64,000 nt of DNA, taken from positions 6,725,135-6,789,134 of the forward strand of contig NC_135255.1 in the NCBI RefSeq assembly GCF_964204865.1. Direction: 5' to 3'. A model generated the notes under the pieces. It did no database searches. It was not told the origin of the DNA and was given only the letters and a program-made list of their open reading frames with translations. This document shows positions 3,001-34,100 of the stretch, one piece after another (position 1 is the stretch's first letter; every line of letters starts with the position of its first letter). Source of the stretch: Styela clava. Lineage: Eukaryota > Chordata > Ascidiacea > Stolidobranchia > Styelidae. The position numbers and the translations under genes were made by a program.

Positions 3001-4380
3001 ATGATAATATAAAGATAGAACAAAGGTGTTCTTGGAGCGAGACAAATGAACAGAAAGAAAAAAAACCAATACAAATGAACGACAACCAAACGAGGGTAAA
3101 CAACGCGATTTTACAACAGCGTAATGGAAATTTGAGTCGCCATTGGAGAAATTATATCAGTGGTGGAAGGCGACGGATCCTAAAATAGATATCATAAGGG
3201 AGGTTACACCAAACTACACGAAAGACCATGACAAAATTTATACTATATAAATGTAGCATATCACAAATAACAATTACTGGATATCAAATTAAGTGCACAT
3301 AAAGGAATATAACAAACTCCATCCATTTTCAACCGCAAATTGGTCAGTGACACAAGCGTAAGCCAATTGCTCGATACGCCGTTCCAAAGGTCTAGTTACA
3401 CATTAACCCAAAGTACACAAAAATATGGTACAGTAAACATATGGACATATAGATAACAGTGTTCTGAAACACATACCACGGAGTCGTGGTCAAAAATACT
3501 TTTGAAATTAGAAGTCACAAATGCGAATTGTGATGATGAATTCTAAACTAGTTCGCGAAAGCGATGTATCGGCGATACCGAGTTCTCTACAAAATATCAT
3601 TTAGGTGTTACACAATTTATGAACACAATGTCGCAAAATAGTTGCATGATTGATTAACAGCTGTATATAGGTAACTATAATATTAACAAGACCACATTAT
3701 CCTTTCATTCAATACAATTCGAATAAATTAATACAGAAAAATTTTATAGCAAGTAGAATAGATTTATGTCCGGTTTTTTGAAAATGCTTCAACTGGGATA
3801 TGTGAAAAAGAATCAATCCTCATTTGAAATCCTTTTGTATCACTAAATATAATATTAATTATTGTGACACTGACCAGTCATGCAAGATGACTGTGACAGA
3901 AGTAGTGTATTATTCTTGTGGCAAATGAAAATATCAATAGCACATCTACATTTTATTCAACAACTTGTACACAAAAATTTTCTGGGTACATAGCAACCAC
4001 AAAGATATACAAAAATCCTTAAACTAATCTACTATGGTTAAGATGTAGTGCTTCATAAGCATTTAATCACATGTTCTGAGAAAATCAAGTTATTCATCAT
4101 GATTCAAACCATACAATATAATTGAGGCATAATATCTATCAGGTAAAGATAAAACTTTTCGCAACAAAAGGACCAGAAAGGCAGGGTCTGATGATTTCAA
4201 TAGAAAAAAATTTAAGTGAATCAGGTCTCGCACGCCAACTCAGAATGGCAGCGAAGCGTTGACACAACAAGCCCTCCAGGCATTGATTAAAGGTTAAACA
4301 TTCGTAAGATAAATAGCAAGTCACGTAGCCCAATAATTTAACTGGCAACCTCCATTACAAAAACCAAACAACCTACACTT
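1..4380. other. Non-coding stretch, no supported gene
   Basis: I see no exon chain, protein family or RNA gene here. Open frames are under about 95 codons, lysine/asparagine-rich and without matching splice phases, as expected by chance in AT-rich DNA. A TATA-like word (TATAAAAG) sits at 1887-1894, followed by a somewhat GC-richer stretch to about 2000. It could be a promoter or an old LTR fragment, but nothing else supports either. Confidence 0.5.
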
Positions 4381-5655
4381 AAGATCTTTATTTATTTTTT
4401 TATTAAAAACAATACAGAATAGTGTTCGCTTTTAAACAGTAAAAGAGAAAGTGCTGAATACTTCTAAATTGTATTGAATAGATCAATTATTACTGTAAAT
4501 ATTCCCCTATCCAGATATGAGTAGATCTATTTGATGCTAAAAGAACGTACCGAACAATTAATGATATGCTTAAATGATAATGACTATGGAACTCATTAGT
4601 AAAAAAAGCTCCAAACGTAAATACAGTAAAAATTCCCTAAAAGCACTTCCTCATATGGAAAGAGTCCTAAACTGAATATTAAATAAATACCAAACACTGT
4701 GTACAGCATAAGGTACATAAATAATTTCACATTGAGGGTAAATAAAATTGCGAACTGCACGACTTCAACTACCTCATAAGATTTTATCAATATAAGAATG
4801 GGTATTCCTACTGGTAAAATTTATTTTTTCAACATTGAAATTCAACTTAGCACTAATTTGTTGATTGTAACATTGCGTATAAAACCACTGAAGGTAAGTT
4901 GAAAGACCAGTCAAAAATATTCACCCTTATTGTACACAGCTGGGTATGCTATCAGAAATGATCCATGTAGAACCTATTCTAAGCAAGAAATATTTTTTAA
5001 CTGGGATCACCTTATTAAAAACGGTAAGCACAATACTTTATGGACGGCCATTGACCAAGCAATGCGAATCGCTATGTCTTGAAGAGAGATTTTATACAAG
5101 ATGTGCGAAAATAATTTTAAACACACAAATGCCACACACATACGTGTGGTCGAGTGTATATAAAATTATCAATCTAATCTAATGAAAGCTTAAAAAATAT
5201 GTACAAGCTCGATACAAGTAAAAATATAGACAACATACAGGGAGAGGTTTCGAATGTTTAACATTTGTACCATAAATAAGTTGAAGTTGAGACTTGACAT
5301 CTAACTGCACCCTTTCTACTATTGATCAAGCATGTCTAACTTGTTTAAAGTTAGAACGTATACCAGTAGGTTAAGAAACCTAGATGTTATATAATAGTTA
5401 CTATGATCAACTAATATTTTCAGTCCTTGGGTGAACATAGTAATCAGGCATAAAATAGTATTTAAACCTCTTTTTTTCAATTGTAGAGAAGAAACAAAAG
5501 CTAAAGATCGAAAATAAAAAAAAACTTGAGGGCAGAATCGTTGAGTCAAAATCAAATACAGCAAGTCTCTTGAATGTTTTTCAGTATACCACTGTTATTT
5601 GACACTTTCAGACCATTTATCGCTTTTAACATCCGTAAGACTTTCAGGTTCCACA
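4381..5655 (-). other. Probable 3' untranslated and flanking DNA of the syndecan gene
   Basis: This lies downstream of the syndecan stop and has no coding signal. Candidate polyadenylation signals (TTTATT on the plus strand, so AATAAA on the minus strand) occur at 4820-4825 and in the T-rich run near 4387-4400. Which one is used cannot be told from the sequence. Confidence 0.35.
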
Positions 5656-8600
5656 TTATGCAAAATATTCTTTACCACCAGCCACACCTTTAGTGTATTC
5701 ATAATTTCCCTGTGGCTTCTTTCCGTCCACACCATATTCCAAAGCATAACTGCCCTCATCTTTTTTTCGCATGCGATACACAAGAAGCATAATGACGCAT
5801 ATTGCGAATAGAAGGCCTATACAGGCCCCAGCAATAATTGCACCCAAAAATGATGGATCTTTGGTTGGTGAGGCACCAACTGGTTCCATTTCTTCATCCT
5901 CTAACTCAGTTGTTTTTACATTCTTCTGCTCTGGTTCATCCTGTTGGGGAAAGAGTTTTATGTCAAAAATTCATTTAGGATTCCAGCCAGGGAAATATTT
6001 TTTTATTTAACAAAACAACAGAAAATTATACCTCCTCGGCTAAGACTCCTTTCGTTCCGACTCCTTTTGTTCCTTTGTTCAGGTCTTTTGGCAGTTCATG
6101 AACCTGAGGAAAACAAAGAGCATTAATAAGTAAAAAATATTGCTCATTACCCAGAAATTGTTACATTAGATGAGATGCATCGCTTCATAATAGTTATTCA
6201 TAAACTCACAGCACAAGTGAGATCAGAATATTCAATAATATAGTATTTAAGTGATACTGATACATACAAAAATAAAGTCATATTGAAGTATTGAAGGATA
6301 TGACAATTTACCTTGATAGGTGTTTTAGCTTTCTCTCCATTTACTTCAGGTTCTTCCTGTAATAAGAAAAAACTAAAATGAAAACCATTGGAATTCGCAA
6401 TAAAAAAAGGTTCGACATGTCGCCAAGTTGAAGACAAATTAAGATCAATTAAGTGTTTTAAACAACCAGTTACTGGTGAAAAAAAACTTACACCAACATC
6501 TATTTCTTCAATGTCAGCATCATCGTCATTTTCACTTGTTGGAATGGGTGCACCTGTTGTAAAAGATTTTCATTAATTGAGATTTCAAAATATATGCTTC
6601 AAGTATGTCAATGACAAGCACATATCACATATAAAATGTTAGGACTAAAAGCACCTAACAAATGCCTTCATTCCCACCATTCTAAATATTGAAACAAAAT
6701 GATAAATGTTATCATAATATAGATTGATAAAAATATATGTTGCTGAAAATTGACAAGTTAATACAATGAATAACAAACGTGTGAAATGTAAAAACAATAA
6801 TCTACATCACCACATCAAATTACTACAGTTCAAAAATCAAAAAACAACGTCATACAAAAATTGATTAGTGGCGTAAAAGATTAGGTGGCTTGCATTTTTA
6901 AATGCCCGTTGAAGCTTAAAACAGTACAATTTCTCATTTATATATCAGTGCCCAAAATAAGACATCAAATTTAAAAATTTATGTACCGGTAATTGGAACA
7001 TTTTGTGCTAAAAAATGTCATAAAATACAATATTTATGAAAGATATGAATATTCTTTAAAAAAGCTAGTTTTATATATATATATATGTGTGTGTAAAATG
7101 AAGATGATTCAATTCACACCAAACAAACACATGCTATGAAAAAAATATGAACAAAATAATATAATGTGAAACTAATTAAACATAACATCATCATTAATAA
7201 TTAAAACAGCTATTGCTGATGTCTCAATAAGTGCAAAGATGAAAACTTGTTACTTAGCAGTCATGTAACACTGTTGAGAATCTTAGAGACACTGCCGAGA
7301 ATTTTCCTTGGTTAAATTTTAGGAAGTATAATTTGTGGTATATCACAATTTTACTTTCACAGTAAAACTGAATGGTAAAAGATAAGAGGGCAGGTTGATG
7401 CAATTTATTCCATCTAACTTTACCTAAAAGATTGATGAAAGCAATTCATGAATCTAATCGAGTGTATTATATATTACTTCTTAGGGCACATGAAATATTG
7501 TGGCAGACAGTGGCAACAAAAGTAAATATGTGTGATGAAATATGATAAATATTCTTAGTCAAAAATGAAAATTTTCACAAAGAGACAATACCACACAATG
7601 TTTCATACTTCAAGCATGCATAGAAACAAAAACAAAAATCCATTCCGATTGAAAACAATAATTTCAAAATGTATTAGATAGACAAAACTATAAAATGAAA
7701 CTGTTAATGTAATATCTCACATCAACGTAGAAAAAGTTAAATAAGTTTCATATTCAAGATTTCTTAACAAAAAGCTTGATTGTGTTAATTCCATTACTGG
7801 TACTTTAATTTAAAGAAATCCAACAAAGCACACTCGATGAGCTTTCGTACCTTTAAATTTATTTTATTTCAAAATATACTCTTTCTTGAACATGGACTAT
7901 TCAAGTACATTTGATAGGCCCGTTTTTTTAATATTTTTAAAACATTTCCAGAAAATACTTATGCAACTTTTTGTTCATGGCTATAAATGAAATAAAATCC
8001 AGTTTTTTTTTAGCATTCTGTACCCAGTTGAAATTATTTTCAAGTCTAAATATGACCCATGAATCGAATGTATCATGCATTGTACAACAAGCAACATCGG
8101 TTTGTTGTATTGTCTACTAAGACATCACTACCAGTCACTGCTTTAGCACCTGAATCTGTCAAAATGCTGGATACTTCATGCAACTTCGGAATTTCCGTGC
8201 TTGTCATAGAATGTATTTCTCCTTCTTCAGCAAATACAGGTGCGATCGTCTCGGTTATAACAGTAGAAGACATAGTGGTTGGATGTGTTTCAATAAATGT
8301 AGTGGTTGTCGCTTGATCGTCATCAATTGGTATAAAGCCTTGGAATTAATTATATACTGCAAGATGACTTCCCAATAGTTTGAGATAAATTAATATCTCC
8401 AATACAGTAAAACAACACTTTATATTATTTAACATAATTCACAATTTCAATTGTCACATTAAATTGGAGTAGCCAGTAAAAGACTATTCAACTATAGAAA
8501 TAGACATATTATTCTGGAAGATATTAAACTATACTACTGGTACAAACCCACATACCAAAGATATCAATGATAGTAAAACGAGGAGTGGATCAGAATTTAT

Positions 8601-9679: not shown

Positions 9680-12640
9680 GTACGTCCTGAAACCACCTGT
9701 TATTATTTATTTGATGGTACCACAAGTATAATCCAAAAAATATAAGTGAACTCTCCAAATCTGGTAGCAAAACCAATCAAGTGTTAAATATATGCGTTTC
9801 AAAGTAGTGCAATGTAGATTCCTTAAATTAAGTGAACTAAAGAAGGGTTGAAAGTGCAAAATAAGTTATATTACAATATTTTGAGATTTTAGGATAGGGC
9901 TGTGCTTGCTACATTTGGTTACCATATTCTAATACTGTACTATAAAGATCAAATTAATAACAATTTCTGCTGATTTTTTTTTCAATATTATTATTAAGTG
10001 TGATTGTTTATAAAAACCGGAACTGAGTACTACTTTTTTTATTCAAAATAGTAAATTGGTAGAACACTATGTAGACTTAAATATCAGAATATAGTAGTAT
10101 TCATAATTAGTTATAGCACGCTGGCATTAGTATATGGTATGATATAGCAGGAATAACACACAATAAACGATAATTCCACATGTATATATGGTTATATATC
10201 ATAACTCTTCCCGATAGTAATCCATCACAGCCCTAATGCTGTAATATTTTGTCATCTTTGCCAATGTTTATAATACAGCAGCCTACAATAAGCAATACCT
10301 GACAAACACTGTAGTATACTTATGACAGCTGGTTTTAAAAAATTTTATTTCTTTTGAACCAGGCTTCTCACACAGGTGCTAAAACGTTAATAGAATTAAA
10401 GATAATGTGAACTAAAAAACTTAATGTCTGAATGTTACTCTACAAAAGCATCACTGCAGTATAACCGATGCATAATGCTATAATGTTCTCAAATTTATTA
10501 AATTTTGAAGCGAGCCGCGGGCTAGCCTACCGATACGGCGATCGCCAGCGTCTTTTCGCCAACAGCCAGACAACCAAAGAACAGTGTCAGCGATAGCCGA
10601 TTACTCAAATTTATCAATTTACAACACTTATAGTCTGATAGTATACTACAGTAAGGTACTTTTGAGTAACGTTATCACATTAAGATTAAGATAAAACTAT
10701 ACGCTGATATCTGACGTTATATATCTACTGTATAAGTTAGATATATACAGTACAGCAGTACCCCTATACTGCTATAAACTATCGATTTAGATAGATACAG
10801 TTACTCAAAAAGCAGATAAGAGCGTACCTAGAGCGTACAGCAATACAGAAACATAACAGACTCTAACAGAAAACAATATGAATTCCAATTATTAACCAAG
10901 CAACTTAGATATCGAAAAAGAAATACCCCGCCGTAAAAACTCCGAAACTACGGAAGCCGTTTCGGCGGCGACGAGCGAAAACAATGATCACGCGACGGCT
11001 GGCAATTGTATTCATCCGCCAGTTGCGTCACTTTCGACGCTTTTCTCCTTTCTCGTTGACGAGAACGTCGCAGATAAGGGGAATATACGCCTGGACATTG
11101 GACTGCATACACGATGATTAAATTTTGAGAACAAATCTCGCCCAAAGAAATGTGCTTTCTATATCTTTAGTAGTCAAAATGCAATTGTTTGTTTACAACC
11201 GCAGCACTTTGCATGGGCATCAGTTCAATTACCATAAAAGGCATCGTCGCGCTATTGTCTTGTGTTGTAGCCTATTTTATTTAACATTTTACAATGCTTG
11301 GCCCGTTAATTGGCACATGTAAAGTGATATGTGTATATCTTTCACTCGCACCCCGCGCGTCGATATTAGCTCGAAAAGTGGGGGCACATGGGGCTGCGAA
11401 AGAAGAACTGAGATAACAGTCATGCATAACTGATAAGAAGCAAACGATATACTGAAATTGGTAGGCTACTTTATATTTCGAGATTTGAAAAAAATATATA
11501 TATTTGAAATTGATGTATCTTAGAGGTGAACTTCCCGTCACATATGTCGCCATTTCGTTTTCAGTGCTTTTGATGAGTTGGGGGGCTACTAACTTCAAAA
11601 ACGATTGAACAGTTTTAATTTGGCTTTTCAACACATTAAAATTTGACGACGCCATCAAATGTGTTACTGCAATAACGCCACATCTATGAAAGCACCGTCC
11701 CATCTGGGTAGTGGATGTGACCAACCTGCTTACGACCGCGATCGACTGAAATCTCGGCTCTGTGGGCGCATTTTAAACAAAATCGTCACAAAAATTTGTA
11801 TTCATTATGTTCCATTTAATTTGTTAATTCAATCATGTAATTGTACCCGGAGTAAATTTTCATAATTTATTTAATATTTATTCGAATCATACAATTCAGA
11901 TCTAAGGTCTGCGTAATTTTTAGTCGTAAAAGTTGGAAATTCTCAAAAATCTTTGCCCAGTCGGCTATAGGCTAGGGCATAGGCCTACATATTATCTAGA
12001 CAGCGAAGAGTAAATATTCTCAAATCATGAATGTTACATGACTGCTCAAACTTCAGTATCTAATTTATCGTGGCGATCGACGTGTTGGCCATCCCTGTTA
12101 TATAGGATTTAAACGGCATATTTACAGTCATACTGCATTGCGACTTTAAATTCTGAATTTAAGGCTATGCACCCCTGACCACGAGAATTTTGAGAAGGAA
12201 AAGTACATGTTGGTTCCCATTTTTCCATCGTTCTACCATATATTAAAGTTATAAAGCACTATGTGGGCTACCTCATACCTCAGATTTCTACGATCAAAAA
12301 ATGGATTCTTGAATCTCACATTTTTGATTATTTAATTCTACCTTCTTTCCCACCGTATACACCCCAAAAAAACAGTCAGAATATTCTGGAAACGAATTTT
12401 ACAACGAGAAGGAAGTTGCGGCAAATAAATAGAAACATGGATGATAACTATAATAAAAGATTAAAAAAAAGCAAATACAGTAGTAAAAGAATATTGAAGA
12501 TAAAGAATAGAAAAGGAGCATCAGCGAATGGCAACGGAAGAAACATTACAAGACAATTTACAGATAAATAAAAATGCAACGGATGATGTAAATAAAAACA
12601 ACGCATATTTGTTTTTGTGTAAATGTCACATGACTCGAAA
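9680..12640. other. Intergenic region between the syndecan start and the Ras-like gene end
   Basis: It holds no supported gene. It should include the syndecan promoter and any upstream untranslated exon; candidate minus-strand acceptors lie about 35-70 bases upstream of the syndecan ATG. Two stretches are GC-richer with several CpG: about 10510-10570 and 10930-11100. The second is open on the plus strand from about 10897 to 11117 without an ATG. On the minus strand a 147-codon frame covers 11281-11724 but resembles no family and has no partner exons. Confidence 0.4.
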
Positions 12641-12671
12641 ACGAGAAAAATGGAATGAAACATGTTTATTT

Positions 12672-15600
12672 TCAACAAAAACAAGAATGCCAGCACGATT
12701 TTTTGCCCGACTCACTGCCATCTGGAGTAGATTGTCTGCTGCTGCGTAGAATGCTCAGCACCGAGTCCAACCGTTTTCTGGGTGTTTGCGGCAAAGATTT
12801 ATTTTTTCCTTTCGATGTTCTTCTGTGTATCACACGAGTAGTCAAATGTTGGAAAACACGATGTAATCTGGCAACACTATTATTCGAAACCTCAGCAAAG
12901 CCTACACACTCTTGCCAAGAACCAACGATTCCTCGAACATATTCAGAAGAGACTTGCGTCCCTCGCGATTTATGAGTTTGATTTAGAACTTCGGCCGCTA
13001 AAGACATTTGCTTTTGGAATACGTTCCTCCTACGTGACCCATTACTTCGAGGACTAAACGAAAACGCAGAACTCAGCAAATGATCATTGCTCGCTTTTCT
13101 TTCCATAACTGGACTTTCAGACCAAGGGGATGCAGTAGGAGCAGTCACATCCTAAAAAAAAAAAAAATATTGTAAATTTGATGGACGTTTTTCCCGCCTT
13201 CATCACTGAGAAAATATTTTTAGATGTCATTTATCATATTGGCCAGGTCATTTATTGCACTGAAATAATCGGCCTAATTGAAGTTCAAAACTACGTATTG
13301 TCTGTCTCCAGGTGTAATTTTATATTCATTTTCAAATCAGTTTTCAGGAACTACATCAACTTACAATGTGGGTTCCAACTACTGCAATTGGAGGTAAAGA
13401 ATCCTCTCCAACTAATCCTGTCATTCGTTTGTTGCTGTTTGTCGCAAGATGATAAGATGGGTCAACTCTTTTCTTCCTGCCGTTGTCCGGAGAGGGTGAT
13501 TGTGACCTCTCCATACTAGCACAAGGGTGCCCTCTGACGGACAAAATTTTATCTCTAATTTGTTGCACGGTGTCAAAAGAACGTCCGTCTTGAACTGAGT
13601 AAACTAGAATGAATGCGTCGGCAGCTCTAATGGCTTCATCGTGTATTGTAGATTTCCCGTCTTGCTTCCGATAAATGAACGAAGGTACAACATTCCTGTA
13701 AAATGTGGAAAATGTTATTGTCTGAATTTTCCATGCCCCTTTCATGCCATATTACCAAGAGAGCAATGCTCAAGTATATGGGCACGAAAGTCAAACATAT
13801 TAGTACGGGTATACAATTCACACAGAAGACTACGGGTATTGCATTCTTCGCCTGACTATCAGATAGCAGCAGACATGAGGGCGGAACCACCACAGGGTGC
13901 GCAATTTTTAGGTTTGATGCCTTTTTCACACCAATTTTATTTCGCCAATAGTAAAACGAGAATATCGGTCGGAGATCGAATACTTATCGATCTTAGATCG
14001 GTAATTAGTTAATAACTCGCTAATTATACGACATAATTAACCCAAAATCTATAGGCTTCTGGTCCGAGGTAAGATGCATGCACATGCAAAATTTGGAGCA
14101 GATTCAAGCACGCGTTCGCGAGATATCGCGTTCATCTAACAGACACACACACAGACACACAGACAGACATACATACATACAGACAAATACCTATCAATAT
14201 ACTTACCGATCTTAAGATCGATAAGTAACAAAAGAGCGCGGTAAAAAGGCGACAATGCTGTGGCAACGAAAAAGCGGTGTTTCGACGATGCGTTTCGGAC
14301 ACGTTTATGTGATTTATCTCTTTATTGAATTTATGGATATCATATATATATATATAATGCATATTTGATGCCATAAAAAATATACACAATCTCATTCTTT
14401 TCGGAGAGAAAGGTTTGTTAATTTTATGCGTAATAGTAAAATACGTACAGGGCCGTCACGTATGTACGAGTGACGCAAAACATTAAATAAAATTTTCAGG
14501 TCACGGAAAGTTGCGCCGATTTATGTACCGCGTGTTAATTTAGCAGTTTCAATCGATATGAGACGCATGACGATATGGTATAGAAAATGAAATCCTAATT
14601 TTTATGCTAAAATATTTTAGAATCATTTTACATTTCATCCTTCTTATATTTCCCTTTTCATTTCATAACTACAGTTTTAGTAGAAAGCCAATCAAGTAAA
14701 ATGTTTCGTGAACCATTTTTTGAATGTTTCATTGTTACTGACAAGGATACACTGACCACTTCGGCTTGACCACCGCCGAGTACTAAGGCAACGTAAAACT
14801 AAACTGATAGATAATCCTATCTGAATCCGCTGTAATAAAACGGTAACGTAACATGCCATTCAGCCGAATTGATATCAATAAATCTATTTTGCTGCACGCC
14901 TCAATACCGAATATCCAGAAATAGATATTTTTCGCAAAACAATGCAACCGGAAGTAGACGTGTTTTCTGTTTATTTGACCTTCCGCCGACAAAAATGAGG
15001 AAATTTTCAAGCGTAATTCAGCGTTGGTAATATTAGGTCATTGTTATAAAATCGGAATAGGTAATAGGTGATGAACACGCTATTTAAATATTAACAGCAG
15101 TATCAAATAATTTTCACTATGGACTTTCTTAATTTGTTTATAAACTAATAGAGTGTTGCATCCATGTTAGACATCTTACTTATTCATTTTACATTTATAA
15201 AACCTAAATACTTCGGCAATTTATCTCTTGCTGAAACAGCATTAAAAGCTCTGAAGAATTGTTGTTGTTTTGTATCGTAACTCAGATGCATTTTCACAAT
15301 GGAGAAGAAACTCCGATGTCACCTATTCTGCATAATGCAGCTAATGCAAACGTGTCAAATTTGCAAGCATTATACCTAGTGAATAGAATTGGATGAAATT
15401 ATATATTTCCACAAAACGTTGGATTTGTACAACTACAGGTTGATCTCGTTCGTGACTGAAAGCTGTTATTTTTGCTATCAGGTCAGACCTTCCTGATTGC
15501 TGGAATATCACAAATAAGTTTATGTGTGGATTTTCCATTTAAATTTGTTTTATTTAGAAATAGGAATTCTGCTCGTCGAGACTGATTTATTTTGGTAAAT

Positions 15601-18293
15601 TAATGCATTTACATTTGTTACTTATTGAACATCGTACTCATGAAATAAGGTGTAACAAAAAAGTCTAAACCTGGGTTTCTCAAACTGGGAACTCGAAAGA
15701 AGGGCACGAGCAAATGACCCCGTTAAGTACGTAAATTGACTGCAGTTTGTTCAATTATTTAATTATATTGCGCGCTGTAACAGTAAATGCCAAGCAGGGC
15801 CTTTGTCAACACTCGGATTTTCCCCGATCAAATCCTAATCTGACAGTTTATGTTTAAAAAGGTGCTCACATAATTAAAAATAGACATATTGTTTGTCTGT
15901 CAGGTAAGGGTTGCCACAACTTCTGTAAAAGCTGATTTCAACAAACTATGCAAAAACTCGAAATTTTAATAATCCCACTAAAATGTTAAATCAATAAAAT
16001 TTTGCGTTGTGAGAACTTTTTAATTCGTTGTGTACACTGAAAAACTAAATTTTATGTGCGGCCCAGCTAAATGTCTGTTATAAGTTGGTTATATGACCCA
16101 CCGACAAAGTATGTTGCACACCCCTGGTCTGAACAATCAACAATCTCCGTTGTATATGATTCTAGTATTGCATTTCGGGAAAAGAAGATAATTATCTTGA
16201 TAACACCGCTAAATTAACATAAGGGTTATTATCAATTTATAACAAAATTACTCAAGATCGTATGGGCGCACTAAGGTCATGAAATCACCATAAATGTATA
16301 ATGATACTGAGGTATGAGTGTATGCTGAGCATAAACCACGTTAAAAATAAATTGTTGTTACCGTGTAATCTAAGGTGAAAGTCCACGAAAAACACAGTTT
16401 CCTGGTAATCTAGCTCAAAAACAACTCCAATGCGTTTCATACGTGTTTATGTAATCTATATATAATCTGTGACGGAAGTCAGATTTAGGTTTCAAGTTTA
16501 TCTAATTTTACAATAAACCGCTACAAAATAAAACCTCAAATGTTGACAAAATACTAAGCATTTAAACTCCATTTTGAACAGAATAATGAATATTAAAATG
16601 ATCGTCTCATTCACCCATTCTAGTTCATTGCATTTTATTTATTACTTGGATCTTTGAAAATATTTTAGACGTAGCTTACATGGACTTGTTCGACTCTACA
16701 AAATTTTTCTTGTATCTTCTAGTTATGGGACTTTTCAACGTCGATACTGGGGGCCTTCGTCGTGGTGTCAGTCGTTGGGCAAGCCGTTGCCTCAAAGATT
16801 TACGTGGTGCGTACGTTCGTTTAAAACTGAAATTAAGAAATGTAGTAAGTATGGAAGGCTTTGAGCGCTCTTCAAGTTAAAATAAAATTAGGTATCAAAA
16901 TTGTTGTATTTCGAAAATACAGTGAGGGGGTTTCCGCATATTGCAAACGACCAAACTTAACTATTATCAATGGCCATTGAAAATGTGAAATGAATGATTT
17001 GGCAAGTTTCGTATGAATACAGAAAATTCAGCTTAAAAGCATTTTTACATTGAATAGTATGTATGATAGATATATATAGGTGTACATACCTTGCAGTATC
17101 AGTGACTTTGATCATAGTCTTGAATTCATTGGTGTCTAATTCATTGTTATTTGAATTTTTTCGTTTATGATGTTTACCTTGTGCATTACGGAGTAACGTA
17201 GAGTTTTGCTGAAAAATTATATTTGAAATATAAGTAATAATAAAATCCCGTTAAACTAATGTAAATAGTGAAAATTTTGTATACAATTTTTGTTTGCAAT
17301 ATTTGAAACAAGCAGCATTTGGATTACATCAACTGAAAACATATTTTTAACTTTAACTACTGAAAATTTAAAATCAAATGTTCAATGAAAAAAACAGATT
17401 TTTTCATAATAACCACAACACAACCAACAACTATAGCAACAAGAACTATTCAGCAAATTGATTGACTTGAATTACTTCTAATCTATCGTCAGTCAGCATT
17501 TACGAATAATCTCAATGCTGATATTTTAATTTCTAAATTCATTTAATTATGTAAATCTAATATACACAATTTTCTTTTAGTTTGGTAGTAGTTGTATTCA
17601 ATTACACGCCTTTTATGACAAAAACAATCTAATTAGAGACGAGACAGCAAACCTGAATGGCTTTAGTAATTTAGCACATTTTTAATCTTATTTTGTTCAT
17701 AATTTCTTGTGAACAAATAATTTATCGATCCCGTAGAAATTGAAATAAACTTACTTGATCAGAAGAGTTGATGTCCATTTTCCAAAGGCATTCCACGCCT
17801 TCTTCTTTTGCTTCCGAATCCCATTTTTCTGATAGTTCTGTCAGATTCAACTCCTTGTAAAAGGAAGCTTCAATTGTGGGTGGACAACTCCCTCTGTAAG
17901 AATTAAAAAAATTGGGTGATTATTGTGACATAACATTACGAGAAAAAAACAGAGCAATGCGCAAATAAAGAAAGACAAAATACCGACACCGCACCTGTAG
18001 TATATATAAGTTATAGCTTTCATGGAGACCCTTTCATTTTTATTTACTGGAAATTCGGATGGGAGAATACGAAGAGAAAATATCTTTTGTTTTAAAAAAA
18101 TAAACAGAAACAAATTAGCAGTAGACCGACCCTCTTGTAGTCAAATATAATACAATAATCATACTTACGCTTCGACTTTCTTCTCGTTTATAAACTGCAG
18201 GGTGACTGCGGTCTTCCCCACAGAAGAGCCGCCCAATATGACAATATTTACTGGCAACTTTGCTGCTTCAATAGATTCCCTGAAGGGCGCCAT
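12672..18293 (-). CDS. Divergent Ras-like small GTPase-fold protein with large insertions (5 coding exons)
   Basis: Exons in reading order: 18293-18169, 17893-17755, 17208-17090, 13695-13365, 13151-12672. Borders are GT/AG and all phases fit, giving 397 residues. The P-loop GGSSVGKT is at 21-28, a switch I-like PTIE at 47-50, a G3-like DTARN at 125-129 (Ras has DTAGQ), and strand 4 LVYSV at 158-162. The G4 position reads THID at 236-239 (Ras NKxD), the G5-like EVSNN is at 325-329, and a final amphipathic helix follows. Extra stretches sit between switch I and G3 (about +55 residues, Lys/Asn-rich), before G4 (about +40) and between G4 and G5 (about +60, Ser/Arg-rich). The tail is basic and ends CWHSCFC, suggesting lipid attachment without a standard CAAX box. 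The P-loop is intact but base recognition looks degraded, so GTP binding may be weak or altered. The subfamily is not recognised. Its largest intron holds two transposon copies. Confidence 0.8.
13981..14227. mobile_element. Small inverted-repeat element with internal CAGA/CATA microsatellite
   Basis: The left end reads TACTTATCGATCTT-AGATCGG. The right end, read on the other strand, begins TACTTATCGATCTTAAGATC, so the termini are inverted copies of about 24 bases. Each end is itself nearly self-complementary around GATCTTAAGATC. A simple repeat of CACA/CAGA/CATA units lies inside near the right end (about 14141-14185). No coding capacity. It lies in an intron of the Ras-like gene. I could not define a clear target duplication. 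Confidence 0.6.
14141..14185. repeat. Compound CACA/CAGA/CATA microsatellite
   Basis: Tetranucleotide and dinucleotide runs inside the inverted-repeat element in the Ras-like gene's largest intron. Confidence 0.8.
15671..16126 (-). mobile_element. Non-autonomous hAT-like element
   Basis: The right end is GCACACCCCTG, a typical hAT-type terminus (CAGGGGTGTGC in reverse). The flanks GTCTAAAC (15663-15670) and GTCTGAAC (16127-16134) match at 7 of 8 positions and look like the target duplication. Internal sequence around 15800-15850 is the reverse complement of sequence near 46097-46150 in the element in the TMEM216 intron, so the two are one family in opposite orientation. No transposase frame. 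Confidence 0.65.
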
Positions 18294-19194
18294 TAGTGAA
18301 ACACGTATTTTGCAAATATTCTTCTCTTTTGTAAAGAGTATGAGAATTTATCCAGTATGAATATCTGTATAAAAATATTAAAATTTTATAATTCAGATTA
18401 AAAATTTTTTTGAACACATCCTTTTCGATATTTTCACATATATATATGTTCAATTTTATATAACCACTATTTATTGGCGTCTCAATCGAAATATATATAA
18501 TAATGTAGCGCATCAGTGAACCTGCTTGCAAATATTGTACTATTTGATTCTCAACATTTAGGAAGGATTCGTGTCCTTGGTCTGATCCTTTCCTAACTTA
18601 AAAATACTTCATTTCTCCCAAAACTTTTTGTCTATATCACGTTATTGTTTTCCTCTCACTAGGGTATGTAAATAGTGTAGTTTATGCAATAGATAACCCC
18701 ATGTGCTATTAATAATCATGATAATCATGTGCTATTTGTACAGTAACGTCAATTAAAAATAGATACAAATTGCAAGTTCATGTTGACCATGTAATGACAA
18801 TACTTCTATTCTGATAGTTTCCGGTTCAGTCAGTAGGGTTCCATACCTAATAAAGTGATCAGGATATTTCATAACATGCAGCCGTACGCGAGTATCAATT
18901 AGGAATTGAACAACATATACACTCCTTTCGTTTGACATAGAAGGATAGACAAGGCCAAGTAAAATCGCAAATCTAACGTGACCTAAGCATGCCATAGCTT
19001 TCCCTCGTGTCATGCACATATTGTTACATCTCAAAAAGTGCTTATTATGCCTTTAAGTCTTTTACGTCTTAAAAGTTCTGTAAATAAAGCGGAAGAATGC
19101 ATCATGACATTGTTTTAGTCGTTTTTATGCGATTCTGGTGTATTTGTCTTGACAAGTCAGGAATTTGCGTCATTGAGTCTTTGTTGCCTATTTC

Positions 19195-31100: not shown

Positions 31101-34100
31101 GAGATGAGGAACACTTTGCTAAACATTCAGGTGCCTATCAATAGTTACTCAATACAGAGGCAAATAAACAATTGAGAAGCTCAATTAGTAATTTTCACAG
31201 CTCTATGTATCAGTAGAATAAAAAGGGAACACACCAAATGAGTATTGTAATATAAATTTCAGATAAAAATATGACTCACTTGCTGTATTAAATGAGTACA
31301 TTTTGATGATTGTAAACCATAGGCATTATTGACTATATGTGGAATATCATGCGATTTGCAGATTTTTGCAAGCTCTTCTAACCTGAAAATAATAGATAAA
31401 TATTGGCTATCTTTGTCAAGTATCAAATTGAGGAATTTTATTTCATGAAAATATTAGAACCATATTACCGATCCTATACCAGCGAATGATCAATCACCAT
31501 AATCATTGAAATATAGATACCGGTATATACATATTGGTGATTTCTGTATCTAAAATATTCTAGAATTCTAGCGTTGTTCACAAAACCGCTGGTCAACTAT
31601 AGATTCCTCCACCATCAAGTCTATGCATAAGAAACAAAAAAACTGGTACTGCTCAACTATTTTCATACCCGACATGAACTAGCAACTGAAAGAGAGGTGT
31701 CAACTATAGATTCCTCCACCATCAAGTCTATGCATAAGAAACAAAAAAACTGGTACTGCTCAACTATTTTCATACCCGACATGAACTAGCAACTGAAAGA
31801 GAGGTGTCAACTATAGATTCCTCCACCATCAAGTCTATGCATAAGAAACAAAAAAACTGGTACTGCTCAACTATTTTCATACCCGACATGAACTAGCAAC
31901 TGAAAGAGAGGTGTCAACTATAGATTCCTCCACCATCAAGTCTATGCATAAGAAACAAAAAAACTGGTACTGCTCAACTATTTTCATACCCGACATGAAC
32001 TAGCAACTGAAAGAGAGGTGTCAACTATAGATTCCTCCACCATCAAGTCTATGCATAAGAAACAAAAAAACTGGTACTGCTCAACTATTTTCATACCCGA
32101 CATGAACTAGCAACTGAAAGAGAGGTCATGGTTCACCATATGTGTAAGCCATCTTATCTTCCTCTCCCCCAGGAAAAATACACAAATCCTATCCTATATA
32201 TCTAAGAATCAACTTCATTTTGAACATTTATATGTTTCTACATATAACAGTGGTCGACTTTATGTACTTTGTGTACTACTGAGCCAAATATACACATTTC
32301 AGGTAGCAAGAGGGTCGCACTAATTTTCGCCTAAAAAAACTATTGCCACATTAAACATCATATTTTGACGCACCTGCAACTTTATTTTCTGTGTTAAATA
32401 ACCAACAGTAGCGATATTTGACTAATTACTACAAGACAAACAACAGCGCAGATAACAATAAATTCATGAGCAACTTTTATCTTTAAAAGTAAAGTCGCTC
32501 GAAGACCACAAAAAATTTGATTGCAGCCAGTGGGCTGCAGTTTGCCGAACACTGATATATAACATTGAATCATCATTTCATTTCACACGATGACAATTTC
32601 TATCCGAATTCCTAATATTTATTTTTTTGCCTATTCATTTCAAATTTCCCAACGTCTAGTAAATACAAATTTTTTAGAAGGGAAGTAACTGCAGAACTTG
32701 TTCGTTGATACAAAAAATAATACCTGTCTGGTACTCGTGGTGCGAAACACGACGTTGTTGAAAATACACATAATATTTTTTCAGCACCATATTCCGCGAT
32801 TGCCTTTTCAACTCCATCAAGATCTGTTCTCAACTCATCTCCTTCTAATTGATTTTCAATGATTATTGGTTTAAATCCAGCAGATATAATGGACTGAAAT
32901 TAAGACAATAATTCATACCAATATGTATCATAATCAGAAATAGATAAGGTTTGATTTGAGAGTTTCTGGTCTACTTAGTTATTAATTGGGATCACAGTGC
33001 AGCAACTGCTGACAGTTTGGTGTGTGCCCATAATGGGGTCCAGGTGAGAGCTATGATTATATATATTAGGTTCATAAGCATTAAAAAATATTATTTAGTT
33101 TTATGTATACTAAAAGTGTTGTAGTCAAATAAGCTCAGAGTTAAAAGTTAATATTTCCAAATAACCCAGACGTGCAAAAGGGCGGAATTTTGCTAAAGAT
33201 AGATGATATCTTATTGTGTAAGTCATCTTCAATGATATAGAACCATGGATTATTCGACTTTCGGGGTGATTTAGGATTATACCCAGACCCAGCCAGAATG
33301 TTTCAAATATTAAAAACTCTTTTGATATCCCAAACCTCATCTGTCTCATTGAAACACCATGATTTAGAATTGAAGGGAGAAAAAAGTGTTGTAAAGGGAC
33401 GGCAGAAGGGAGCATAGTAAGATTTATTTTACATAAAACACACAACATGTTACAGTTCTTTGCAAGTAATCCTAGAATAGAATTTACCTTAAAACATGAT
33501 TTTTGATCGATACGAGGCCATATAATATATTCTGCCCCAGGTCTTAGACTTCTCAAAGTAAGAAAACACAAAGTGAGAGTCATTCCAGTTGCCATAGGAA
33601 CAATAATACAATCTGATGTAGACTTCACACCTAGACTGACGAAAACGTAATATAAACTGTATTTAACAAAGTTGAATAAAAACTTATAAGCCTTGAAAGA
33701 ACGAAACTATGAAGAGGATTAATTAATAACCACTCCTGTAGTATGCGAACCAAGATGGCGGACACCGAAGTGTAGTACTATTTTATTCCAATTTTCCTTA
33801 TTTTAGTTCTATTACGAGTTTGGGGACTAGCCAAGTGACTCCCGTAGTATTTGTAACTGAAATTATGGCCTAACCTGGTACACATACTTCGTTACAGTGT
33901 CCGCCATCTTGGTTCACATACTACAGGAATACCAATTATTAAGACACACTTCCTTTTTATTTATGATTATTTTTTAATCAGTTGGATATATAATGATATT
34001 AATCTCATTGATAGTCTTATGAAAAACATTAGCGAAGGGGTGTACTGGCTTGTAACTCATTAAATCTTGAAATAAAAGTTGGAAAGATTTGTGCAGACAA

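What the first reader, a model, noticed from the sequence alone, without database searches (positions are those of the whole stretch)
12672..18293. Ras-fold protein with an intact P-loop but eroded G3/G4/G5 and three large insertions
The sequence shows a five-exon frame with GGSSVGKT, PTIE and LVYSV at Ras-like positions. The G3 site is DTARN (Ras DTAGQ, so the catalytic Gln position is lost), G4 is THID (NKxD) and G5 is EVSNN (SAK). Insertions of roughly 55, 40 and 60 residues sit between the conserved strands, and the tail ends CWHSCFC. Known small-GTPase biology predicts poor hydrolysis and weak guanine specificity. I infer a pseudo-GTPase or an altered switch, possibly a lineage-specific Ras branch.
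Basis: partly seen in the sequence, partly recalled or inferred. Interest (0 to 1): 0.7.

Follow-up and report, generated by a model that had tools for sequence, protein, structure and literature searches.

The report
Divergent Ras-like protein with degraded motifs
An animal gene encodes a far-diverged Ras-like switch protein that keeps the residues for holding a nucleotide but has lost those that Ras uses to break down GTP; it is unusual, but of a kind already known.

Summary
Five minus-strand exons with GT-AG introns splice into one 397-aa frame that matches Pfam Ras at E=1.1e-10. The quoted motifs and three inserts (about 55, 42 and 63 residues) are there. No unsplit DTAG or NKxD exists in any minus frame nearby.

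"Weak guanine specificity" is doubtful: D119 is kept and LRRK2's Roc domain also reads VGTHxDV.

It is a Ras-family domain of unresolved subfamily: branch length 2.61, no starred placement, none of 10 finished AU tests rejected. The genome holds separate RAL, MRAS-like, RHEB, RERG, RASL11-like and RASD-like genes. Its RERG and RASL11-like genes also have eroded G3 motifs, and the RASL11-like one has a long insert.

Best reading: a lineage-diverged atypical Ras protein, with no close paralogue found, that binds nucleotide but hydrolyses and switches poorly, like Rnd/RhoH (pseudoGTPase class ii). This is inferred; binding was not tested. New member of a known kind, interest 0.3.

The parts
18169..18293 (-). 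Exon 1 (aa 1-41 and 2 nt): start codon, beta1, P-loop GGSSVGKT (Ser at Ras positions 12 and 13)
   Evidence: Walker A kept; donor GTAAGTAT
17755..17893 (-). Exon 2 (aa 42-88): switch I PTIE (Thr35 kept), beta2, first half of insert 1
   Evidence: donor GTAAGTTT, acceptor TTCTTACAG
17090..17208 (-). Exon 3 (aa 89-127 and 2 nt): second half of insert 1, beta3, G3 DTA-R (Gly60 replaced by Arg)
   Evidence: donor GTATGTAC, acceptor TTTTTCAG
13365..13695 (-). Exon 4 (aa 128-238): rest of G3 (Asn at Gln61), helix 2, beta4 ADAFILVYSV, helix 3, insert 2, beta5 and THI of G4
   Evidence: Pfam Ras best stretch aa 140-182; donor GTAAGTTG
12672..13151 (-). Exon 5 (aa 239-397 and stop): D of G4, insert 3, G5 EVSNN, helix 5, tail with RRTS and CWHSCFC end
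   Evidence: acceptor TTTTTTTTAG
17755..17841 (-). Insert 1, first part (insert about aa 60-114), approximate: between beta2 and beta3
   Evidence: on the disordered side of the charge-hydropathy line; limits set by eye
17131..17208 (-). Insert 1, second part, approximate
   Evidence: as above
13401..13526 (-). Insert 2 (about aa 185-226), approximate: between helix 3 and beta5, Ser/Pro/Lys-rich
   Evidence: on the disordered side of the charge-hydropathy line; limits set by eye
12954..13142 (-). Insert 3 (about aa 242-304), approximate: between G4 and G5
   Evidence: on the disordered side of the charge-hydropathy line; limits set by eye

Best explanation
It is a strongly diverged member of the Ras-domain family in an animal, with no close paralogue found in its genome. 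Shown from sequence: the nucleotide- and Mg-binding residues K16, T17, T35, D57 and D119 (Ras numbering) are kept; Gly12, Gly60 and Gln61 are replaced by Ser, Arg and Asn; and three long hydrophilic inserts sit in loops of the Ras fold. Inferred: it still binds guanine nucleotide and Mg; intrinsic and GAP-stimulated hydrolysis are very low; and switch II does not close normally on the gamma-phosphate. It would then sit for long times in one nucleotide state, probably GTP in an open 'state 1'-like form. Output would be set by expression, by phosphorylation or partner binding at the disordered inserts and basic tail, and possibly by lipidation of the C-terminal cysteines, rather than by GEF/GAP cycling. 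This is how Rnd/RhoH-type atypical GTPases (pseudoGTPase class ii) work.
For: Gene model and coding signal. Pfam Ras 1.1e-10. THxD at G4 occurs in LRRK2 Roc chain 2zej (that this chain binds GDP is recalled). Effects of losing Gly60 and Gly12. PseudoGTPase classes i/ii/iii. Inserts and tail fall on the disordered side of the charge-hydropathy line (4 of 4 segments) and core pieces on the folded side (5 of 5); segment limits were set by hand.
Against: No biochemistry, transcript or orthologue. RGK proteins also diverge at several G motifs and are listed as retaining catalysis, so motif loss alone proves little. N116>T, K117>H, A146>N and K147>N could together weaken binding to the point of class i. 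State 1 also means poor effector affinity, so a classical effector output is not expected. The Gly12/Gln61 rules come from Ras and need not transfer.
Confidence: 0.5

Rival explanations
1. A nucleotide-free pseudoGTPase (class i, as p190RhoGAP pG1 or CENP-M): only the fold survives and the protein is a scaffold.
For: Three of five G motifs depart from consensus (G3, G4, G5). Class i examples exist.
Against: K16, T17, T35, D57 and D119 are all kept, whereas p190 pG1 has substantially degraded G motifs. THxD is carried by LRRK2 Roc.
Confidence: 0.2
2. A fast-evolving relative of the RERG/RASL11/RASL12 group that still works as a slow GTPase; the odd motifs are that group's usual drift.
For: Highest identity in the tree is to an own-genome Ras-like gene, L037 (29% over 104 columns; IRWADAFILVY against IRAADAFILVY), though that gene matches RERG and M-Ras about equally (37.4 and 37.7 bits). 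This genome's RERG G3 reads DSIRQ (also Arg60) and its RASL11-like G3 reads DSAIP, with a long insert before RRLRWADA (exon ends inferred). The group lacks CAAX (PMC2186344 passages), as here, and RASL11b has a natural Ser at the position mutated as S42V.
Against: RERG and RASL11-like genes exist separately. The free tree puts the gene with M-Ras, RAL, Rab and Rho rather than with this group (fork 81/86, not starred). Intron 3 is 4 nt off the RERG-type intron. AU p 0.18 (RERG), 0.24 (RASL11), 0.19 (RASL12) neither reject nor support.
Confidence: 0.25
3. Gene-model error or decaying pseudogene.
For: No RNA evidence; motifs look eroded; long branch; exons 1 and 5 score slightly below zero in the codon model.
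Against: Five open exons, intact splice sites, phases that fit, in-frame codon score best of six in 5 of 5 exons; no unsplit DTAG/NKxD alternative in any minus frame.
Confidence: 0.05

Closest known systems
Classical Ras proteins (M-Ras, RAP, RAL, RIT)
   Same: Ras domain; best sequence scores; K16, T17, T35, D57, D119
   Different: Ser12/13, Arg60, Asn61, THID, EVSNN, three long inserts, no CAAX; 397 aa
RERG/RASL11/RASL12 group
   Same: ADAFxLVYS-type region, no CAAX, RRxS tail motif, eroded G3 in this genome's RERG and RASL11-like genes
   Different: Those genes are separate; G4 NKxD kept in both; tree unresolved and leaning elsewhere
RASD1/RASD2 (Dexras/Rhes)
   Same: Asn61 in both and Ser12 in RASD1 (recalled human sequences); long basic tail
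   Different: Dexras1 has CAAX and NKxD; this genome has three RASD-like copies elsewhere (L027 two, L028)
Rnd/RhoH atypical GTPases
   Same: No Gly12; RhoH also has an altered G3; constitutively active
   Different: Rho family; this gene's core scores 4-9 bits to RHOA/RAC1
LRRK2 Roc domain
   Same: VGTHxDV at G4 and, by eye, non-SAK G5
   Different: Pfam Roc 19.6 bits, under its cut-off 27; no other Roco domain among the Pfam matches of the protein

Membership tests
Ras domain family (PF00071) | Profile match over curated cut-off | tested here: met
   41.7 bits against 21.6
Ras domain family (PF00071) | Closer to Ras than to Rab or Rho | tested here: met
   51.5 against 22.5 and 9.2 bits for the hand-trimmed core (recalled references). 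The AU test does not reject joining Rab or Rho (p 0.12-0.13)
Canonical Ras GTPase | G1 GxxxxGK(S/T) with Gly12 | tested here: not met
   Walker A kept, Gly12 and Gly13 are Ser
Canonical Ras GTPase | G3 DxxG with Gln61 | tested here: not met
   DTARN
Canonical Ras GTPase | G4 NKxD and G5 SAK | tested here: not met
   THID (Asp kept), EVSNN (Ser kept)
Canonical Ras GTPase | C-terminal CAAX | tested here: not met
   Ends CWHSCFC; the CxC end resembles two Rab-like ends in this genome, CAC (L002) and CPC (L005)
RERG/RASL11/RASL12 | Clade in a tree | tested here: inconclusive
RERG/RASL11/RASL12 | No CAAX | tested here: met
RASD (Dexras/Rhes) | CAAX, NKxD | tested here: not met
   RASD-like copies elsewhere
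Roc (LRRK2) | Roc profile over cut-off | tested here: not met
   19.6 against 27 bits
[quoted passage not shown]
   G3, G4, G5 depart from consensus; fold inferred from sequence only; definition
PseudoGTPase class ii | Binds nucleotide without hydrolysis | not testable with these tools
   needs protein

The most novel reading that the evidence does not exclude
A lineage-specific Ras-domain pseudoGTPase, permanently in an open 'state 1'-like nucleotide-bound form. Its three disordered, phosphorylatable inserts have taken over from GEF/GAP cycling as the control, making it a signalling scaffold built on a Ras fold with a LRRK2-like base-binding loop.
Probability: 0.25. Interest if true: 0.5.

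Novelty: new member of a known kind. Interest (0 to 1): 0.3.

Why it matters
Natural Ras-family proteins that combine Ser12, Arg60 and Asn61 with kept Mg/nucleotide ligands are natural tests of which parts of the Ras switch are needed for signalling. Other Ras-like genes of the same genome (RERG DSIRQ, RASL11-like DSAIP, L039) show that G3 erosion recurs here. That makes the case less exceptional but gives a small series to compare.

Tried and rejected
RASD membership was suggested by Ser12 and Asn61. I set it aside because RASD-like copies lie elsewhere in the genome (L027 two, L028) and there is no CAAX. The AU test did not formally reject it (p 0.125).

Alternative exons: no D[TS][AS]G, and no [NT][KQH]xD free of a stop, in any minus frame over 12000-18600. 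A motif split by an intron, as THID itself is, would escape this scan.

Relatives in public collections: none in viral contigs (3 pattern matches, none confirmed). Genome contigs (bacteria and archaea) was not scanned. No eukaryotic protein collection is on hand, so orthologues could not be sought.

Amphipathic helix in the basic tail: not supported. The best 14-residue moment (from residue 372) is not significant (shuffle fraction 0.058).

Clade of the animal: COX1 gave 0 matches. A second marker family (PF01341) did not complete. The clade is left open.

Folding single exons would not answer the question.

Papers: searches (listings, several capped at 12-15 of more hits; no hits). No listed title concerned this protein. 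Seen in part: PMC13236570 outline and section 15, PMC5593906 passages, PMC3979064 passages, PMC2186344 passages, PMC4867591 passages.
Full report
What is there. The window is eukaryotic (GC 0.31-0.38 in 4-kb steps) and lies in a 376.6-Mb genome of 379 contigs. The gene is on the minus strand at exactly the given coordinates. Five exons join in frame with consensus splice sites at 4 of 4 introns, giving 397 aa. Other genes on the same strand are a syndecan (Pfam 4.6e-22), a SepSecS exon (1.6e-23) and a PDZ protein (8.3e-22) that looks like SYNJ2BP (name recalled).

Is it real. The spliced protein reaches Pfam Ras at 41.7 bits, cut-off 21.6, E=1.1e-10, and 400 distinct PDB sequences at E up to 1, of which the best 60 were shown, M-Ras first at 1.4e-7. 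NCBIfam small_GTP is only 14.1 bits, under its cut-off of 42.5. The codon model was trained on 1784 codons outside the gene: the annotated frame is best of six in 5 of 5 exons, and the CDS mean is 0.015 against a null of -0.187 (sd 0.037, maximum of 2000 draws -0.074). Other frames are penalised for stops, so part of this is openness. Exons 1 and 5 on their own score about -0.08. In the PF00071 search of the genome none of the 144 matches (150 of 227 candidates scored) falls on this gene's exons, which shows how diverged it is.

G1 GGSSVGKT: K16 and T17 kept, Ser at 12 and 13. G2: T35 kept in PTIE. G3 DTARN: D57 kept, Gly60 to Arg, Gln61 to Asn. G4 THID: N116 to Thr, K117 to His, D119 kept. 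G5 EVSNN: S145 kept, A146 and K147 to Asn.

Does the base-binding loop fail? Not necessarily. The LRRK2 Roc chain 2zej reads VGTHLDV at G4 and, by eye, has no SAK at G5, against VGTHIDV here. That 2zej holds GDP and that Rho proteins use TKxD are recalled; a TKLD is in the recalled RAC1, and two Rac-like genes of this genome read TKID and TKSD (L013, L014).

Inserts. About residues 60-114, 185-226 and 242-304; limits set by eye. All three and the tail fall on the disordered side of the charge-hydropathy line (4 of 4); the five core pieces fall on the folded side (5 of 5). Similar spacers are not unique here: the genome's RASL11-like gene has a Ser-rich stretch before RRLRWADA and one between helix 3 and beta5, and a Rab-like gene, L024, has one at the latter site.

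Relatives in the same genome. A search with the whole protein found its own five exons and three weak places: E 0.015 (a RAL gene), 0.072 (L035/L037, a Ras-like gene that matches RERG and M-Ras about equally) and 0.51 (RERG, L036/L038); only 7 candidates were scored. Other Ras-type genes, named by best match to the recalled set: RAL L003, MRAS-like L018, RASD-like L027 (two) and L028, RERG L038, RASL11-like L040, RHEB L042. I looked at 39 fetched loci outside the window gene, several overlapping (L001-L008, L009-L028, L034-L036, L037-L044), not at every one of the 144 matches, so a closer relative split over short exons may have been missed.

Subfamily. By pairwise score the core is nearest to classical Ras proteins (one search gives HRAS/RAP2A/RALA). 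In a 26-row tree it is a long branch (2.61) in no starred set; it falls in a fork with M-Ras, RAL, Rab and Rho (81/86, not starred). Ten finished AU tests of joining it to RASD, RERG, RASL11, RASL10, RHEB, GEM, RASL12, Rho, Rab and NKIRAS reject none (p 0.12-0.35); the DIRAS test did not finish. The IRxADAFILVY stretch, the RRxS tail and the missing CAAX point weakly to the RERG/RASL11 group. Against it, the tree leans elsewhere, the G3 intron lies 4 nt before the RERG-type one, and a helix test on the tail was negative.

How it probably works. Loss of Gly12 is given as the reason why Rnd and RhoH are constitutive (PMC13236570, section 15). H-Ras G60A is held mainly in state 1, a form with poor effector affinity, and its GTPase is drastically impaired (PMC4867591 passages). 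With Mg and nucleotide ligands kept, a nucleotide-binding, poorly cycling protein (class ii of PMC5593906) is the best reading, about 0.5. A nucleotide-free scaffold (0.2) or a slow GTPase of the RERG/RASL11 sort (0.25) remain open. None of this was measured.

Novelty. Atypical and pseudo-GTPases of the Ras superfamily are an established kind, and this genome shows several Ras-like genes with eroded motifs. I did not meet the exact combination in the parts of five papers that I saw or in the listings of searches, which is a limited look.

Noticed in passing
L038 (own genome C10:14784000-14793900), about 4400-4530 minus: The RERG orthologue's G3 reads DSIRQ (exon end inferred), so Gly60 is Arg there too.
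   Followed up: partly
L040 (C19:16133000-16142900), 4027-4630 and 6468-6527 minus: The RASL11-like gene has G3 DSAIP and a long Ser/Asp-rich insert before its RRLRWADA helix.
   Followed up: partly
L039 (C3:25496000-25504000), 4219-4560 minus: Another degenerate Ras-like protein: P-loop GSLNSGKS, VRNEGG where G3 should be, VGTQGNM at G4.
   Followed up: no
G000 C10:13933811-13959170: Tandem cluster of at least four Rab-like genes (four first-exon and four middle-exon matches; two copies read in L041).
   Followed up: no
L027 (C8:15259376-15268346): Two tandem RASD-like copies with nearly identical P-loop exons about 7.8 kb apart.
   Followed up: no
window 31592-32126: Five perfect tandem copies of a 107-bp unit.
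   Followed up: no
window 5656-5970 minus: Syndecan exon whose cytoplasmic tail ends EYFA where EFYA is usual (usual form recalled).
   Followed up: no
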